Assembly (NCBI GenBank): GCA_945875585.1
Contig: CAMCLK010000022.1
Coordinates: 1 to 64,000, forward strand
Reading direction: 5' to 3'
Length of the DNA stretch: 64,000 nucleotides
Source of the DNA: Candidatus Kuenenia stuttgartensis
GTDB taxonomy: Bacteria; Planctomycetota; Planctomycetia; Gemmatales; Gemmataceae
In this document: positions 45,824 to 52,509 of the stretch, one piece after another
Position numbering within the stretch: the first letter of the stretch is position 1
Layout of the letters: each line of letters opens with the position of its first letter
The notes under the pieces: generated by a model
The model's database searches: none
What the model was told of the DNA's origin: nothing
The model's input: only the letters and a program-made list of their open reading frames with translations
Made by a program: the position numbers and the translations under genes

Positions 45824-46531
45824 CTATTTCCAATTTTCCCAGATGTTCCCAGATTTTTGCGTGGCCATATTGAAATTAGGCACATGACGTAGCCCGGGAT
45901 GCTTCTGTTGCGGGTTGGGTTCCCACAGATGAAGTCCCTCCGCGATGTCTAATCCCATGCTGACGAACTGGTCTAGGCATGCCAGTTTTTTCGAACCGGG
46001 CCATTGGGCCGCAGCGATTACCAGAGCGGTGCCCGCCATTTTTCGGGTCAGGTGCGCTCCCGGTTTGATGGTTTTACCAGGCACGGAACTAATGTTTTCA
46101 CCCGTGAACAACGCCGCTTGCGCCAACAAACCCACCGTGCCGCCGTCACGCAGGATTTCCTTGGCCTGACCTATCGCCGTCAGATTGTCAGCCGTTGGCA
46201 CGCGAACAAATGCCGCCACCCTTCTAAGTATTTCCTCGGCGCCCGATTGATTCAGCAGACGGTAGGTCTGCCAGACCCCCAATGTTGCGTACCAGAGCGA
46301 TTCCCGTGGCGGGAGCCATGCCGCAATAAACTTCACAGCATCTGCGCGCCGGCCAAGCTTAATCAGGTCCGTCACGAATAAATGGGAGTTCAATCCACCT
46401 GTCAGGGCTTTCGCTCGCGCGCTCAGCTTGGTCCGCGATGCCACCACAAAGGCGGCTTCAGCGCCAGAAATGACCACGGGCCGCATGGTGGGTAGCAGCG
46501 TGGGCGGCACCCCCCCGGAATTCAGGTCCAT
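45824..46531 (-). CDS. DUF6931-like protein, second paralogue, with C-terminal GNIWENW motif
   Basis: This 235-aa protein starts at ATG 46531, preceded by AAGGAG located inside the end of the upstream gene; the two overlap by 10 bp, so translation is coupled. Residues matching DUF6931 include FVTDLIKLGRRADAVKFIAA and WLPPRESLWYATLGVWQTYR, then LVIAAAQWPG and GLDIAEGLHLWEP. The extreme C-terminus reads SGNIWENWK, the same motif as in the 182-aa protein two genes upstream. No signal peptide is seen. DUF6931 proteins, as I recall, occur near VgrG/PAAR genes and may be adaptors or chaperones; this role is inferred. It is the last gene of the cassette. Confidence 0.7.
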   Translation of the reverse strand: MDLNSGGVPPTLLPTMRPVVISGAEAAFVVASRTKLSARAKALTGGLNSHLFVTDLIKLGRRADAVKFIAAWLPPRESLWYATLGVWQTYRLLNQSGAEEILRRVAAFVRVPTADNLTAIGQAKEILRDGGTVGLLAQAALFTGENISSVPGKTIKPGAHLTRKMAGTALVIAAAQWPGSKKLACLDQFVSMGLDIAEGLHLWEPNPQQKHPGLRHVPNFNMATQKSGNIWENWK

Positions 46532-47181
46532 GGGCATGCTCCTTGGGCAATTTCCGTGCCCACCGACAGGAAGTGGCGGAGGTATTGCCTGTACCTTCCA
46601 GCGTCGAAATGCACCGAGGCCAGATAAACGACGACAGCGCAGAGCTTTCCGCACAGATGAGGTTTCGGTTCCACGTGCCGCAGAGGTGTAGGCGAAATGG
46701 ATCCACCCGAAAGCCAAACCGCAAAACAAAGAATACCAGCCATCGATGTTGTCCCGCATGCGGCGATGGCCGCTTTGCAGCGCGCTCTGTTCGCATCGGT
46801 AGGATCATTGATCCACGCTCGGGCTGCCTCCAACCCGATAATGTGCTCCGGCTCAACACTCCGGTGGCGGATCGCCTCTCGTACCGAAAGGTAACCCCAC
46901 CATACAGCATCGCGCTTGTCCATAGAATGAGCCATTAGGCGGCGAGCTTCCGCGAGGTGTCCAGCAGCGATAAACCTTTCCAGCGCCACGCCCACCGCCG
47001 GGCGATCGTCTAGTAGGCTTAACGCGCAGGCAGGCAACCGGAACAGAAGGCAGAGGTCTTGTGCCGGCCTCTGAAGGGCGGACGGACTCAAGATTTCCGC
47101 TATCTTCCCGGTCGCATCCATGGGGGCGCGTTCCAAAACCAGACCGGCTTGATTCATCGCACGCAAACCTAAAACTGGCAT
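46522..47181 (-). CDS. DUF6931-like protein, first paralogue
   Basis: This 219-aa protein starts at ATG 47181 behind GGAGG at good spacing; an adjacent GTG is less likely. The pattern ALERFIAAGHLAEARRLMAH followed by MDKRDAVWWGYLSVREA is the hallmark of DUF6931 proteins. The C-terminal half with LCAVVVYLASVHFDAGRYRQ and LSVGTEIAQGACPW also fits. It aligns by eye along its length with the next gene, so the pair arose by tandem duplication. It lacks the GNIWExW tail. No catalytic residues are recognised; an adaptor or structural role in spike loading is a guess. Confidence 0.72.
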   Translation of the reverse strand: MPVLGLRAMNQAGLVLERAPMDATGKIAEILSPSALQRPAQDLCLLFRLPACALSLLDDRPAVGVALERFIAAGHLAEARRLMAHSMDKRDAVWWGYLSVREAIRHRSVEPEHIIGLEAARAWINDPTDANRARCKAAIAACGTTSMAGILCFAVWLSGGSISPTPLRHVEPKPHLCGKLCAVVVYLASVHFDAGRYRQYLRHFLSVGTEIAQGACPWT

Positions 47182-47226
47182 CACACGATTCCTCCAGCCG
47201 GCTAAAAAACCAAATTTAACATCGTT

Positions 47227-47775
47227 TTAAGGCCGATTGTCATCGGGTTTCTTCTTGGGTGGCACATCGGAGGCCTTGTGCGAATCAGACGGAGCCCACC
47301 CCTCCCAGATGTTGCCCGTGGTCCTGATAGGCTCCTGGCCCGCCAGCGGTATGCCCATGACTCCCTTGCGCAGGTCACTTGCCGATAGCAGAACGAATTC
47401 CGGTTTTGCCGGTGGCTTCGACACGATGGGCGACGGGCGCTTAGCCGGTGATGTCTTCGACTGTCCAGTTGGCCGGAGCTTTTCCATCATGGTTGCATGC
47501 GCCTCGAGTAAACCTTTAAAGCCTTCCGCCATCGCGAACTGAACGCGGCTTCTCCGAAGGTTGAACGACTCCTTCGCCTTCACCGCGATCTGTTCGAGGC
47601 CGTTCATCAGGCGTCGGGTCTTGGCCGATTCCCGCATGTCCACCACCAGCGAGCGTCCCATCTCGAGGGCCACGCCTGCTGGTAGCAGCGGTAGCAGTTG
47701 CTCAAGCTTGCCTACCATCATTTCCTCGCACTCAGCAAGGTTCGAAGGCCCCTTGGGCAATTCTCCTTCGTTCAT
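47227..47775 (-). CDS. Cassette protein with helical N-terminus, proline-rich linker and GNIWEGW motif
   Basis: This 182-aa protein belongs to no family I know. Residues about 1-105 are predicted helical, with charged heptad-like runs (MNGLEQIAVKAKESFNLRR). A Lys/Pro-rich linker follows (about 106-128). The C-terminal segment has LLSASDLRKGVMGIPLAGQE and then GNIWEGWAPSD. The last motif recurs at the end of the final cassette gene. No signal peptide or membrane helix is present. It starts 10 bp after the distal-spike gene and ends 45 bp before the first DUF6931 gene. A linker or adaptor that docks onto a shared partner is plausible. Confidence 0.7.
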   Translation of the reverse strand: MNEGELPKGPSNLAECEEMMVGKLEQLLPLLPAGVALEMGRSLVVDMRESAKTRRLMNGLEQIAVKAKESFNLRRSRVQFAMAEGFKGLLEAHATMMEKLRPTGQSKTSPAKRPSPIVSKPPAKPEFVLLSASDLRKGVMGIPLAGQEPIRTTGNIWEGWAPSDSHKASDVPPKKKPDDNRP

Positions 47776-47785
47776 GGTTCTACTC

Positions 47786-48541
47786 CTACTCGATGGTTGT
47801 CATTCCCGCTGTCGAACTGGCTTCCGCGTCGAATGTGTTGGTCACGCCGGTGGCCTCGTTTTCGGTCGTGGCGTCGGCTTCATTAATAAATGTCGCAGTC
47901 GTCGTTGTGATTCCGCTGGCTGCGACCATCATTTTTGTTTCCGCGGAAATGATTTGGTTCGTTTCCGCCCCCACAATTGTGTGGCCAGTGGAACTTACCG
48001 TGCGCGAGTTCATGGCCGTGAACAACTCAAGGATTCCAGCGGTGGTGAGGTTGTAGCTGGCTTCTCCACAAGCCAAGGTAATGCCTGTCGCGGTTATCGA
48101 CAGCATCGTTCCACCCACTTGTAGAAGAATCTGCCCGGGATTCACCTTCACCGATGCCTCCATCCCATCGCCCGAGGCTTTAAGCAACGCCGACGCCATG
48201 CCCAACGACAACACCGATGCAGCCGACCCGAACCCAGTGCCTAAGAGGGCGTTCTCATTGTTCATCATCAAGCTAGAATGGGGACCGTCTCCGCTGGTTG
48301 AAAGGGATATACTTGCCAACGGGCCCGATGCTCCAAGGCTCACCGCTCCCGAACCCGCGCTCGTCACTAGGCCGAGACTGCAGGCATCGGTGGCGATGGC
48401 GGCGCTTTGGCTGGCAGAGATACTGACAATTGATTCCAACCCGAAACTGGTGATGTTGAAGACCCCCGCAAGCGCCGTGAGGTCAACGCAGTTGTAGGCC
48501 TGAAACCAATTTTGCTCGGAGTAATCTCCCTTGGCACCCAT
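47786..48541 (-). CDS. VgrG-like distal beta-spike protein
   Basis: This 251-aa protein is rich in Ser, Thr, Ala and Gly in short alternating beta patterns. Residues about 135-165 read GQILLQVGGTMLSITATGIT, close to the repeating strands of the VgrG C-terminal beta-prism (gp5 needle/DUF2345-like). The C-terminal 80 residues are Thr/Glu-rich. The VgrG encoded two genes upstream ends early, so this may be its needle encoded separately. It could form a trimeric spike extension capped by the PAAR protein. There is no signal peptide. This is structural inference from sequence pattern; a phage-tail-like fibre is an alternative. Confidence 0.65.
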   Translation of the reverse strand: MGAKGDYSEQNWFQAYNCVDLTALAGVFNITSFGLESIVSISASQSAAIATDACSLGLVTSAGSGAVSLGASGPLASISLSTSGDGPHSSLMMNNENALLGTGFGSAASVLSLGMASALLKASGDGMEASVKVNPGQILLQVGGTMLSITATGITLACGEASYNLTTAGILELFTAMNSRTVSSTGHTIVGAETNQIISAETKMMVAASGITTTTATFINEADATTENEATGVTNTFDAEASSTAGMTTIE

Positions 48542-48600
48542 GCGATTGATCCCCCTTTAGCTTTCATAAAAATTTACCAGTGGTTTCCACACGAGGATAG

Positions 48601-50487
48601 TTACCTCCAAAATGCTTTCCCGATTAAAGTGGCAGATTCCCCGACCGTTCTCAATCCCTTTTCGGCCATTTTTGTGGTTTTGTGAGCTGCTCTTATCGCC
48701 AAACTGCGACCAGCGGATTCATCAAGCGCTTTTACACACTCTAGAAGAGTGTCATTGAACTCATTCCCCTTGGCTATCAGCAAGGTCGACATGGCCTCTT
48801 GCTCCGCCTTGATGTCCGCGTCCAATCCAGCCAATAGAGCGGCTATGCCGGCGGCAGAGGGATTAAGGTCGGAAGCGCCGTCACCGTTGGTCGTCGCGAC
48901 GCCCACACCACTTGTAGACTGCATCTGGGCGATGAATTGATCTTGAACCAACGGCAAGTCGGTGAGTTTCCCGTTAATCTCGGATGTTTGGATCAAGATG
49001 AAGTCAAGCTGCTGCTCAAGATTTGTGATGTTTGACACAACTGTTTTTTCTTCAATGCTTCTATTAAGGATTTTAGCCGTTTTTTGTTCCTGTATGGCAA
49101 TCATGATGTCCTGCTGGAGAAGGAAATACCCCTGCAGGGCCATGTTATACTGGGTGGCTTTCACCTGGTATTGCATTCCCACCTGCGCGAGAAGGTTAGA
49201 CTTGTCCCCCTCGGCCACCATCGCCTTCACCTTGGCCAGTTCCTTCTCGTATTCCTCATTCAGCTTGGCAATCTGCTCTTCGGTTTCAGCCTTCAAATCA
49301 TTCAGGCGATCCATCTCGCTGTTGACAATTGCTGTCAGTTCTTCGAGCTTTTGGTTGTACTTTTCGCTCAGACCATTCATTGCGGAGGTGAAACCAAGGC
49401 GGTCTTGTTCCATGCTCGCCTGCAATGCATTCAATTCATCGACCAAAGTCCGGGTATTAGCCTCGAACGTCTTCTGCATCCCTTCAAGTTTGGTCTTAAG
49501 GGCATCCACCTCGGCCTGACTTTTCTGCACATTCGCCTTGTAGGCGTCGCAATCGGCTTGCAATTTGGCCAATTCCTGCTTGAAGCCGGCGATTTCGTTG
49601 TCAAGCGATCCCTTGGCGTTTTGGAGATCCATGAGAGCGGTGGTGTTGCTGTCGATGAGTTGCTTCAATGTGTCGCTATTTCTTTTAAATTCATCCTGCA
49701 TAACCGCGGTCTCGGAGTCGTCGGCGATGAAGGCCTGTGCTTTTGTTTTCTCGTTGTAAAGAAGTTCTTTGGACCACTTGTTCTGGTAGTAGGGAACAAA
49801 GATGAGGAAAATAGCCTCGATGATCTCGACAACGAGTGTCGCCGTGGCGCTCATGCTCGAGGAATACATTTCGACGACCGTGTCGAATACATTTTTCATC
49901 AAAACACTAAGGCAATAAACAAAATAAAAGAAAGATTTCATGGCTGAATCAACCGCTGTCCATTGACTTTGCTTGTCAATGTCGGAGGCGTAGGTAAGGG
50001 TGTTGACGGCCCTGTTGACTGACATCAGGTCGCCCTTTAAGTTCATCTGGGCGGAGTCGCCGAGCATCAACGTGAGGTAACCGTTCCAGTTGACGGCGAA
50101 CCTTTCAGCTTCCGAGGTGACACGAAGGCCCGGTATTCCAGAATTTTGCGTGAAGTATTGATAGTTTCCAGCCCCGATAGCCCTGAGAGCTCCCAGGATC
50201 CTGCTTGTGGTAGTTGGGTTGTAAATGGCATAGTTGGCGATATCTTTTTCCAGCAAAGGGCTTGGGTCAGGCCTCTGATATTGAAAAGTTTTCGTTTCGA
50301 TGTCTATTTTTTCCCACAGCCTGACCATGTCAAGCTGGGCCGTGAGCGATGATCCAAATGAGTTGGTGATTTGGGCGCCAAAAAGGTTTTGGCGCGTGCC
50401 GTTGCCGTTGAAGCTTTGATATGCCGCGCTATTCTCCGAGAGCCAGTCCCGAAACCAAACCAAAGCGTCGCCGCCAAATCCGCTCAT
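48601..50487 (-). CDS. Large protein with two hydrophobic segments and long coiled coil; candidate cargo
   Basis: This 628-aa protein has no family I recognise. Residues 1-180 are mixed. Two hydrophobic segments lie at about 185-207 (FFYFVYCLSVLMKNVFDTVV) and 213-233 (ATATLVVEIIEAIFLIF). A long coiled coil runs from about 265 to 440, with heptads such as LQADCDAYKANVQKSQAEVD. A helical C-terminal region follows. There is no Sec signal. It starts 9 bp after the VgrG stop codon and sits between VgrG and the separate spike domain, a position where T6SS effectors are commonly encoded. The hydrophobic hairpin plus coiled coil suggests a pore-forming or membrane-disrupting effector, or a tape-measure-like structural part. 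No immunity gene is obvious. Confidence 0.72.
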   Translation of the reverse strand: MSGFGGDALVWFRDWLSENSAAYQSFNGNGTRQNLFGAQITNSFGSSLTAQLDMVRLWEKIDIETKTFQYQRPDPSPLLEKDIANYAIYNPTTTSRILGALRAIGAGNYQYFTQNSGIPGLRVTSEAERFAVNWNGYLTLMLGDSAQMNLKGDLMSVNRAVNTLTYASDIDKQSQWTAVDSAMKSFFYFVYCLSVLMKNVFDTVVEMYSSSMSATATLVVEIIEAIFLIFVPYYQNKWSKELLYNEKTKAQAFIADDSETAVMQDEFKRNSDTLKQLIDSNTTALMDLQNAKGSLDNEIAGFKQELAKLQADCDAYKANVQKSQAEVDALKTKLEGMQKTFEANTRTLVDELNALQASMEQDRLGFTSAMNGLSEKYNQKLEELTAIVNSEMDRLNDLKAETEEQIAKLNEEYEKELAKVKAMVAEGDKSNLLAQVGMQYQVKATQYNMALQGYFLLQQDIMIAIQEQKTAKILNRSIEEKTVVSNITNLEQQLDFILIQTSEINGKLTDLPLVQDQFIAQMQSTSGVGVATTNGDGASDLNPSAAGIAALLAGLDADIKAEQEAMSTLLIAKGNEFNDTLLECVKALDESAGRSLAIRAAHKTTKMAEKGLRTVGESATLIGKAFWR

Positions 50488-50496
50488 GAATCCACC

Positions 50497-52149
50497 TCAC
50501 TGCCATTCGATGCTTGATTTCGGTCGCCTGAGAATCTGTGCCATTTCCTGCGTTGTCAGCAGGCGCGACTCGGCGTGGATCAGGATATTCTCCGACCCTC
50601 TGGCGTCCGACATCACGATACGATGAAAGTTATCATGCGCGTTACCGCCCTCGGTTTTGGAATGAAAACCCGACATATAGGTCATTTCGGGTAGTGTGTA
50701 GGGTGTGATGTTGGTCGCGTTGTAGACGCTGCCAATGATGATCGGCCGGTCGGGATCGCCGTGCTCGAACGCCACCACCACCTCGTTGCCGACCCGTGGC
50801 CAGAAGAATGCCCCGTAACCCTTACCAGCCCATGGCTGAGCCACTCGGATCCAGCAGGAACTATTGCCCCCGTTTGAGTCCGCCGAGTCCCACCAGAAAC
50901 GCACTTTCACACGGCCGAATTGATCGATGCGAGCCTCTGTGCCCTCAGGGCCAGTAACGATAGCTGTCTCAACCCCGCCAACCTTAGGCCGTGCCACTGG
51001 AGGCCACGGTTTCTGGGGAACAGCGGCAGGGGCGGCACGAAACCTAGTTGAGCAGCGGATCTCTGGACTTTCGGAAGTCCACCCCACGCCCTCTTGGCGG
51101 GCCTCGTGTTCCACTTCCAGCACGATCCAAATTCCGCTCGACGACGGATGACCTAGAAGCTCGAACAGCACGCCCGGTGCCAAAAGTGTGCTCCGGGCTT
51201 TACCCTGCGCCACTTGAACTTGTGAACCCGCCGCTAAAGCCAAGGCTGCCGCCCTTTTCTGAGCCGAGTCGTACATGCTCGGAATGGCATCTGGATTATC
51301 CAAGCCGGCTTCGTTCAAATGGTCGAAATAGCGTGCGGTACCCAAATCATGTGCCTGCCAAACCGCTTTGAAAGGACTATCGTTCACCGTTGGTATCGCG
51401 TCACCCGGGGCTGGTTTGACACTGGCTTTGCCTTCGAACACCCTGTTGAAAACCTGAAAATGCGTGTCGACGATTCCTACCGCGCCAGTACGGATGCTTT
51501 TGCGAGTGTTCCACTCGTGGATGGTGTCGATGCTGATCGCTGTGCCAGTGACTGCATTATATTGAATTTGTCCCACAGAGGGGTTTGAATGGGTGTTGTC
51601 GGTAATTACCAACTGATGCCCTGCGCGTGAGTGGATCCAGAAATGTGCGAGCCCCTCCTCGCTGCACAGCCGGAAGAAAAACTCAAGGTCGGTTTCCCTG
51701 TACTGAGTGCAGTAATTGCGCGTAGCGGGGAGATTGTTCACCTCAATCAAACCGCCGCCTACGACTGATAAAATGTCCTTAAGAATTTGGGTCGCAGACA
51801 TCGACTGGAAAATCCGTGATCGCTTGTTGAGCGACAGCAACCACAGTTTCGGCCGCAGAGTCAATTCGTACCAGCACATGTCTCGTGCAGGTTCCAGCTC
51901 CGCGATCTCTGCAACCATGCCGTTGAAATAGCGGTAGCCACCTTGGCCCAGATCGCAGGTTACGGTTACCATTTGGCCCAGTAACGAATCTGGGTTTGGA
52001 TCGGGGTTGGCCAAATCAGTAGGGCGCTTCGTCCCCGCGACCACGACATATTCGAAAAGCCCCGAAAAGGTTTCACGCCCTTTGAAGTCAAGGACTACAA
52101 AAACATTTTCGCCAAGAGGGGTTTCAAGGGTGAACGGAACGGTTGGCAC
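50497..52149 (-). CDS. VgrG/TssI-type spike protein, short C-terminus
   Basis: This 550-aa protein starts at GTG 52149, fixed by GAGGAG six bases upstream. The N-terminal gp27-like part includes LETPLGENVF, FRLCSEEGLAHFWIHS and a phage late-control-D-like pattern. The gp5-like OB fold near 400-500 contains DQFGRVKVRFWWDS, CWIRVAQPWAGKGYGAFFWP, RVGNEVVVAFEHGDPDRP and IIGSVYN. These are diagnostic of the T6SS tip protein. It ends soon after GFHSKTEGGNAHDNFHRIVM, so the long beta-prism needle of typical VgrGs is nearly absent. It follows the PAAR gene and precedes the coiled-coil candidate cargo. Confidence 0.95.
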   Translation of the reverse strand: MPTVPFTLETPLGENVFVVLDFKGRETFSGLFEYVVVAGTKRPTDLANPDPNPDSLLGQMVTVTCDLGQGGYRYFNGMVAEIAELEPARDMCWYELTLRPKLWLLSLNKRSRIFQSMSATQILKDILSVVGGGLIEVNNLPATRNYCTQYRETDLEFFFRLCSEEGLAHFWIHSRAGHQLVITDNTHSNPSVGQIQYNAVTGTAISIDTIHEWNTRKSIRTGAVGIVDTHFQVFNRVFEGKASVKPAPGDAIPTVNDSPFKAVWQAHDLGTARYFDHLNEAGLDNPDAIPSMYDSAQKRAAALALAAGSQVQVAQGKARSTLLAPGVLFELLGHPSSSGIWIVLEVEHEARQEGVGWTSESPEIRCSTRFRAAPAAVPQKPWPPVARPKVGGVETAIVTGPEGTEARIDQFGRVKVRFWWDSADSNGGNSSCWIRVAQPWAGKGYGAFFWPRVGNEVVVAFEHGDPDRPIIIGSVYNATNITPYTLPEMTYMSGFHSKTEGGNAHDNFHRIVMSDARGSENILIHAESRLLTTQEMAQILRRPKSSIEWQ

Positions 52150-52201
52150 TTTTTGCTCCTCGACTACAGACCGGCTCCGGTTTTCGCAACGCGGCTGAAA
52201 A

Positions 52202-52225
52202 CATCGGGCCTGTCAGGGCCCGATG
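52202..52225 (-). promoter_or_regulatory. Hairpin spanning the PAAR stop codon, possible attenuator
   Basis: A perfect 9-bp stem (CATCGGGCC/GGCCCGATG) with a 6-nt loop covers the end of the PAAR gene including its stop codon. On the minus strand it is followed by TTTTC. It could terminate part of the transcription before VgrG, or set mRNA stability, giving more PAAR message than VgrG message. Confidence 0.5.
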
Positions 52226-52509
52226 AAAACAGTAGGGGCTCCGGGTCCAACAACGGTTCCGCCGTGCTCGCATAAGTCGCCAACGCGGCAGATAGGCATG
52301 CCCCCAGCACTCACAGTTGGGCTTCCTAAAGCCAAAGAATTCATAGGGCCCACACACACAGCCTCGTCACCCTCGATGATCGCTGGGAGGTTGCAAATGA
52401 ACACGGTTGGACTGCCGGGGCCGATAATCGTCCCACCCACATGTGGCACCACTCCGGTGACCATTGGGCACACATGAGCATCACCGATCATTGCCGCGGG
52501 CATGGGCAT
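52213..52509 (-). CDS. PAAR-domain spike-tip protein
   Basis: This 98-aa protein is a stand-alone PAAR protein. It has two similar repeats, HVGGTIIGPGSPTVFI and EHGGTVVGPGAPTVFI, and metal-ligand candidates in GDAHVCP and GDLCEHGG. Such proteins form a zinc-bound cone on the VgrG tip and sharpen the puncturing spike. The start at 52509 has an in-frame ATG two codons later as an alternative. It is the first gene of the cassette, separated from VgrG by 63 bp. The divergent DUF1501 gene upstream leaves about 220 bp that should contain the operon promoter. Confidence 0.93.
   Translation of the reverse strand: MPMPAAMIGDAHVCPMVTGVVPHVGGTIIGPGSPTVFICNLPAIIEGDEAVCVGPMNSLALGSPTVSAGGMPICRVGDLCEHGGTVVGPGAPTVFIGP

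What the first reader, a model, noticed from the sequence alone, without database searches (positions are those of the whole stretch)
45824..52509. Orphan seven-gene spike cassette: PAAR, VgrG, coiled-coil protein, detached spike domain, linker protein, two DUF6931 proteins
The sequence shows seven minus-strand genes with gaps of 9-63 bp, one overlap and good Shine-Dalgarno sites. PAAR and VgrG motifs are clear. No Hcp, sheath, baseplate, TssJLM or ClpV gene lies in the window. Together these suggest a self-contained delivery module that borrows, or lacks, the contractile machine. The combination of split VgrG, membrane/coiled-coil protein and DUF6931 pair is not one I recognise.
Basis: partly seen in the sequence, partly recalled or inferred. 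Interest (0 to 1): 0.85.

Follow-up and report, generated by a model that had tools for sequence, protein, structure and literature searches.

The report
Three-piece T6SS spike with membrane insert
In a bacterial genome that also encodes a type VI secretion machine, the injection spike is encoded in separate pieces (a hub lacking its needle, a predicted membrane-spanning middle piece, and a stand-alone needle), which likely reassemble into one spike and would give the cell a swappable slot in the shaft.

Summary
The seven genes are real. They are not a self-contained module: the same genome encodes a T6SS on other contigs (TssB, C, E, F, G, K, L, an IcmF-type N-terminus, Hcp, ClpV), and six of the seven genes recur in the same order inside that core locus; in two relatives all seven follow TssG directly. 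The window holds one of five VgrG cassettes of this genome. New is the architecture. VgrG stops where its needle should begin (81-86 aa after the OB domain in 25 of 25 VgrGs near a separate needle, at least 196 aa in 75 of 77 others). The needle is a separate gene. Between them lies X, a variable protein, usually with one predicted transmembrane helix. Relatives carry VgrG-X-needle unbroken, broken at either joint, or at both, always in that order, so I infer one composite spike capped by PAAR. The linker protein (27 of 28) and, in two genera, the last DUF6931 protein (13 of 14) carry the same peptide at or near the C-terminus, GNIWENW or a close variant: a likely shared docking tag. X's activity, the tag's receptor and the assembly itself are untested. 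New variant of a known kind.

The parts
52213..52509 (-). PAAR tip protein, 98 aa
   Evidence: PF05488, 62.9 bits, cut-off 27
50497..52149 (-). VgrG hub and OB domain, 550 aa, ends 81 aa after the GDPDxP motif (needle missing)
   Evidence: PF05954, PF04717, TIGR03361 above cut-off; tail length
48601..50487 (-). X: shaft-insert protein, 628 aa; conserved N-terminal region, one predicted TM helix (residues 213-231), long coiled-coil-like helices after about residue 258
   Evidence: family alignment and hydropathy; low-confidence model, mean pLDDT 50
47786..48541 (-). separate needle (repeated short beta-strands, residues 46-191), 251 aa
   Evidence: model; its profile matches C-termini of full-length VgrGs
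47227..47775 (-). linker protein, 182 aa, with the tag near its C-terminus
   Evidence: linker family
47296..47316 (-). tag GNIWEGW in the linker protein
46522..47184 (-). DUF6931a, 220 aa, no tag
   Evidence: PF22011, 118.7 bits; C-terminus
45824..46537 (-). DUF6931b, about 237 aa, with the tag at its C-terminus
   Evidence: PF22011, 84.9 bits; start
45830..45850 (-). tag GNIWENW in DUF6931b

Best explanation
These seven genes encode a cassette that likely builds an alternative, three-piece tip for the type VI secretion system whose core genes lie on other contigs of the same genome. Shown: VgrG ends where its needle should start; a separate gene encodes a protein related to VgrG needles; X lies between them; relatives carry VgrG-X-needle as one chain, or split at either or both joints, in one order. 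Inferred: a VgrG trimer (hub), an X trimer and a needle trimer stack in that order, PAAR caps the needle, and the whole tip is loaded on Hcp and fired. Inferred: X is a swappable, membrane-inserting segment or cargo mounted in the shaft; on firing its helix would enter the target membrane. Inferred: the linker protein and the DUF6931 pair are loading adaptors, and the GNIWENW-type peptide that the linker and DUF6931b share docks both on the same, still unknown, receptor.
For: T6SS core in the same genome and the cassette repeated inside it; the seven genes directly after TssG in G055 and G058. VgrG tail 81-86 aa in 25 of 25 VgrGs near a separate needle, against 210-375 in 9 of 9 near DUF6931 without one and 196-466 in 66 of 68 others. 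The needle profile, built from separate needles only, matches the C-termini of full-length VgrGs in G141 and G263 (1e-8, 5e-8). An X profile built without them finds VgrG-X chains in L097 (3.4e-5) and L100 (2.5e-4), and the X profile finds VgrG-X chains with separate needles in G630 and G675; X-needle fusions in C39, G095, G097 and G022. The layouts need 6 changes on a tree of 41 VgrG heads, 17.5 for shuffled labels. Tag: 27 of 28 linkers against 4 of 1,900 other ORFs; 24 of 25 with a linker profile stripped of the tag; last DUF6931 13 of 14 in two genera; whole genome 9 DNA matches, 7 in cassettes, control 0.
Against: No structure of the assembly: the X model is poor (mean pLDDT 50), only monomers could be modelled, and the needle's fold matches are weak (best PDB E 5.5e-3) or topped by unrelated single-layer beta proteins in the second look. 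The X N-terminal profile shows no link to ordinary VgrG tails (hhalign probability 0.2% or less). G022 has an X-needle fusion with no VgrG found beside it. Three genomes with needle hits lack a sheath match in the listing (G001, G063, G064) and two more are not among the matches (G095, G098), though most of these are incomplete or show other T6SS genes. No immunity-like gene or known toxin domain was seen, so the cargo role of X is inference; for the window itself X has the same GC3 as VgrG. The tag is absent from the DUF6931 proteins of G007, G035, G055, G058, G445, G630, G675 and G687.
Confidence: 0.62

Rival explanations
1. The separate needle is an assembly template like TvpC, a VgrG mimic that holds PAAR in a pre-complex and is then replaced by VgrG, rather than part of the fired spike.
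For: TvpC proteins (DUF6484, DUF3540) are separate VgrG-like proteins encoded beside vgrG and needed for VgrG-PAAR spike formation (abstract and passages of PMC13373197). A weak DUF3540-like protein lies beside TssK in this genome's core locus.
Against: TvpC has an OB-fold and a beta-prism (passages); the needle here shows only repeated strands. VgrG itself lacks its needle in 25 of 25 cases, so nothing would be left to replace the template; fused chains exist. No DUF2169 or DUF4150 match in the seven proteins.
Confidence: 0.08
2. X is a structural spacer or fibre that only lengthens or anchors the spike, and the delivered cargo is something else or nothing.
For: The variable ends of X are coiled coil, alanine zipper or Gly-Ala-Glu repeats, with no toxin domain; no obvious immunity gene follows the window's cassette.
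Against: X is the most divergent part and has lower GC3 than its VgrG in 19 of 24 cassettes, and one genome holds several different X, which fits a swapped cargo; but composition alone does not show toxicity.
Confidence: 0.25
3. An ordinary orphan VgrG island: VgrG and PAAR form the usual tip and X, needle, linker and DUF6931 are merely neighbouring effector and adaptor genes.
For: Orphan VgrG islands are common in T6SS genomes (recalled; multiple VgrGs per genome also in the abstract of PMC6971182).
Against: The match of the needle profile to VgrG C-termini, tail-length complementarity and fused chains tie X and needle to VgrG itself.
Confidence: 0.1
4. A self-contained delivery module that lacks or does not use a contractile machine.
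For: No T6SS core gene was hit on the window's contig.
Against: T6SS core genes and sister cassettes are in the same genome and the same set lies in T6SS loci of relatives.
Confidence: 0.03

Closest known systems
Canonical T6SS VgrG-PAAR tip
   Same: Hub and OB domains of VgrG, a needle and a PAAR cap, in a genome with T6SS core genes
   Different: Needle and shaft are on separate chains, with protein X encoded between hub and needle
Francisella T6SS spike (VgrG with PdpA)
   Same: Needle-only protein separate from the hub; best PDB hit of the needle model
   Different: There the needle chain is the one called VgrG, lacks even the OB-fold, and PdpA may stand in for the hub (passages of PMC5924787); here hub and OB stay together and X is added
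Tvp complexes (TvpC, DUF6484 or DUF3540; DUF2169)
   Same: Extra VgrG-like protein and adaptors encoded beside vgrG and PAAR
   Different: TvpC is an OB-fold mimic replaced by VgrG; here VgrG itself lacks the needle, and no DUF2169 match was found in the cassette
prePAAR transmembrane effectors with Eag chaperones
   Same: Transmembrane segments carried at the T6SS tip, with dedicated partner proteins (abstract of PMC7773334)
   Different: There the TM segments belong to PAAR effectors; here PAAR is a plain 98-aa tip and the TM segment is in X, placed behind the needle
VgrG - DUF6931 - PAAR loci of planctomycetes and acidobacteria
   Same: VgrG, DUF6931 and PAAR as neighbours
   Different: There VgrG is full length, usually one DUF6931, and no X or linker gene was recognised

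Membership tests
T6SS VgrG (TssI) | gp27-like hub domain and OB domain | tested here: met
   PF05954 5.5e-55, PF04717 2e-18, TIGR03361 407.3 bits over cut-off
T6SS VgrG (TssI) | C-terminal needle on the same chain | tested here: not met
   81 aa after GDPDxP; PF22178 16.3 bits, under cut-off 30.9
T6SS tip cassette (VgrG island of a T6SS genome) | PAAR partner next to VgrG | tested here: met
T6SS tip cassette (VgrG island of a T6SS genome) | sheath, Hcp, baseplate, membrane-complex and ClpV genes in the genome | tested here: met
   TssJ not searched, TssM seen only as an IcmF N-terminal domain protein
T6SS tip cassette (VgrG island of a T6SS genome) | toxin domain with immunity gene | tested here: inconclusive
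   no toxin family in X; no systematic search for immunity genes
Francisella-type split spike | needle-only VgrG without OB-fold, hub on PdpA | tested here: not met
   hub and OB domain are on the VgrG of the cassette; definition from passages
Tvp complex | DUF2169 protein with DUF4150/PAAR protein and TvpC mimic | tested here: not met
   no DUF2169 or DUF4150 match in the seven proteins
prePAAR effector | TMD and toxin on the PAAR chain | tested here: not met
   PAAR protein is 98 aa with the PAAR motif over residues 18-87
Extracellular contractile injection system | eCIS sheath and baseplate genes near the spike | not tested
   only the T6SS sheath family was searched
Composite VgrG-X-needle spike | physical assembly in one complex | not testable with these tools
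   needs multimer modelling or biochemistry

The most novel reading that the evidence does not exclude
A modular T6SS spike: the VgrG shaft has been cut open, a swappable membrane-spanning protein is mounted between hub and needle, and a shared C-terminal GNIWENW docking tag on two different adaptors sorts the matching pieces onto one machine, so that one genome fields five interchangeable tips.
Probability: 0.4. Interest if true: 0.8.

Novelty: new variant of a known kind. Interest (0 to 1): 0.64.

Why it matters
VgrG is usually taken as one chain with the needle fixed to the hub and cargo attached outside it or at the PAAR end. A shaft opened in the middle, with a variable, predicted membrane segment inside, would be a new place to load cargo, and the natural fused and split versions make the order of parts testable. 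The shared tag gives a concrete handle for finding the loading receptor, and a first functional context for DUF6931, a family on which I found no paper in the held library.

Full report
What is there. Seven minus-strand genes, 52509 down to 45824, run PAAR, VgrG, X (coiled-coil protein), needle, linker, DUF6931a, DUF6931b with gaps of 63, 9, 59, 10 and 42 bp and one overlap. PAAR, VgrG and both DUF6931 domains pass curated cut-offs; X, needle and linker match nothing above cut-off.

Not an orphan of a machine-less genome. The window is the first 64 kb of contig C22 (74,578 bases) of a 4.66-Mb, 113-contig genome, 93.7% complete. C73 carries TssB, TssC, Hcp, an ImpE-like protein, TssE, TssF, TssG and ClpV, followed by VgrG, X, needle, linker and two DUF6931. 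C39 carries a protein with an IcmF N-terminal domain, VgrG, an X-needle fusion, linker, two DUF6931, DotU and TssK, and a second PAAR further on. C83 has two more VgrG-X-needle-linker modules and C42 a second Hcp. The genome search finds five VgrGs, and each is followed by such a set. TssJ was not searched.

How widespread. The needle profile finds 13 of 102 genomes of the order (5 of 44 genera), with up to 11 matches in one genome; two of the 13 (G063, G064) have only weak hits near 3e-4. In a phylum sample it finds 5 of 392, two of which (G141, G263) are full-length VgrGs rather than separate needles. The X N-terminal profile finds 16 of 397 genomes of the class (9 of 185 genera), four of them (G445, G630, G675, G687) in two other families; part of these hits are sequences that the profiles were built from. 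The sheath family occurs in 44 of the same 102 order genomes. Of the 13 needle genomes, G000, G002, G007, G022, G055, G058, G096 and G097 are among the 44; G001, G063 and G064 are listed without a match, and G095 and G098 are not among the matches. G095 (56% complete) and G098 show other T6SS genes beside cassettes (L175: ImpE-like, TssE, F, G, ClpV; L181: TssK, DotU and a relative of the C39 IcmF-type protein). The window's family is probably Gemmataceae: a contig of G044, same family, has the length and gene layout of a record titled Gemmataceae. That is an inference.

The VgrG is cut before its needle. Of 116 VgrG ORFs in the loci examined, 102 had a stop codon and the GDPDxP motif. Tails after the motif: 81-86 aa in 25 of 25 near a separate needle (X-needle fusions included); 210-375 in 9 of 9 near DUF6931 without a separate needle; 196-466 in 66 of 68 others. 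The two short others are L094, whose contig ends just after VgrG, and L096, where an X and an open, strand-repeat-like gene follow. The 14 rows dropped are fragments or lack the motif; among them are L044, short by another motif (106 aa from FWPRVG), and L100, the fused chain. Many rows are kin or copies within one genome, so these are not independent events.

The separate gene is the missing needle. Its model has sixteen short strands from residue 46 to 191, with block means of 91-97 over residues 91-160 and disorder after 191 (mean pLDDT 67, pTM 0.55). Foldseek's best PDB hit is the VgrG of the Francisella PdpA-VgrG complex (E 5.5e-3; no PDB hit under 1e-3), with two phi92 spike entries in the top 20. 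The profile, built only from separate needles, matches the C-terminal ends of the full-length VgrGs of G141 and G263 (1e-8 and 5e-8). Profile-profile comparison with full-length tails gives 70% probability for all tails pooled, but only 27% for the tails of DUF6931-type loci.

X belongs between hub and needle. X proteins share an N-terminal region (consensus), then usually one or more hydropathy-predicted TM helices (26 of 28 X), then a variable part. An X profile built without them finds two VgrGs: L097 of an Acidobacteriota MAG (residues 621-705, 3.4e-5) and L100 of a Gemmataceae MAG (641-728, 2.5e-4); no other ORF of the 78 named loci scores below 0.9 except L096's X, which was in the profile. 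The layouts are: VgrG-X-needle in one chain (L100, the same contig as G044); VgrG-X with separate needle (G630, G675, and L097, whose needle I call by eye); VgrG with X-needle fused (C39, G095, G097); all separate (window, C73, C83 and most others). In every locus where all parts were seen the order was the same. On a tree of 41 VgrG heads the five layouts need 6 changes (least possible 4) against 17.5 for shuffled labels; the 25 other X-bearing VgrGs form one side of a branch and L097 lies with the ordinary ones (98/92, midpoint root). So joints were broken or fused more than once. This is why I infer one composite spike.

X as a variable slot. Between cassettes of this genome X aligns poorly while VgrG stays near 40% identical. 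Third-position GC of X is below that of its VgrG in 19 of 24 cassettes, median -0.21; for the window it is equal. Lengths run from 196 to 736 aa among X genes not fused to a needle, and the C-terminal parts include coiled coil, alanine zipper and Gly-Ala-Glu repeats. Cargo and spacer readings both remain open; I lean to a membrane-inserting cargo.

A shared tag. Linkers carry GNIWENW or a variant (IW[EQD].W), at or near the C-terminus, in 27 of 28 complete cases of at least 150 aa, against 4 of 1,900 other ORFs of the same loci. Because the linker profile was seeded with tagged proteins, I repeated the search with the tag region removed from the seeds: 24 of 25 hits carry it. In the window's genus and genus g52 the last DUF6931 protein ends the same way in 13 of 14 cases with a complete C-terminus (the fourteenth ends RNIWED); no DUF6931 protein outside those two genera has it, neither in other split cassettes nor beside full-length or fused VgrGs. 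A DNA pattern for the peptide occurs nine times in the genome, seven of them in cassettes, with no match of the reversed pattern. Two otherwise different proteins with one peptide suggest one receptor; which one is unknown.

What is in print. No paper of the held library mentions DUF6931 or the peptide. Searches on planctomycete T6SS with VgrG, VgrG with split or beta-helix, Gemmata with T6SS, VgrG needle as separate gene, planctomycete injection systems and truncated VgrG (listings and abstract starts only) showed no description of this layout. Freshwater planctomycetes have been reported to carry T6SSs (passage of PMC6461901). The nearest described cases are the Francisella VgrG-PdpA spike (passages of PMC5924787), Tvp complexes (abstract and passages of PMC13373197), a DUF2169-assisted tip (passages of PMC11883445) and prePAAR effectors (abstract and passages of PMC7773334).

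Verdict. A T6SS tip cassette whose layout no current family model covers: a new variant of a known kind. Strong on anatomy and evolution, inferred on assembly, open on X's activity.

Noticed in passing
L035:9368-9868 (G000 contig C39); relatives beside TssK in L045, L094 and L181: A weak DUF3540-like protein (E 0.0068, under cut-off) lies beside TssK in the core locus; DUF3540 proteins are TvpC templates elsewhere.
   Followed up: no
L037:991-2542; similar in L173, L183, L189 and L095: Between the main cassette and DUF6931 lies a second, smaller set: a protein of about 225-260 aa, a short needle-like protein (170-188 aa) and in most a short linker-like protein (about 104-121 aa) without the tag.
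   Followed up: no
L175 (G095:C104), L177 and L178 (G096): Tandem arrays of two or three VgrG-X-needle-linker modules; in L175 directly after ClpV and a PAAR gene.
   Followed up: partly
L060:9299-9808 (G000 contig C42): A second Hcp, 89% identical to the one on C73, away from the other T6SS genes seen.
   Followed up: no
L185:7989-9608 (G022): An X-needle fusion with no VgrG recognised beside it; the upstream gene is a subtilase-family protein.
   Followed up: no
L043:18379-19998 (G001): The VgrG of the sister cassette reads in two ORFs, a frame break or assembly error.
   Followed up: no
L046:11992-13839 (G035): An X protein whose C-terminal half is a long Gly-Ala-Glu repeat.
   Followed up: no
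L043 and L040: In G001 and G002 the cassette lies beside a pair of genes of 1643 and 1144 aa, in G000 beside a Gfo/Idh-type oxidoreductase gene, so the island sits at different places within one genus.
   Followed up: no
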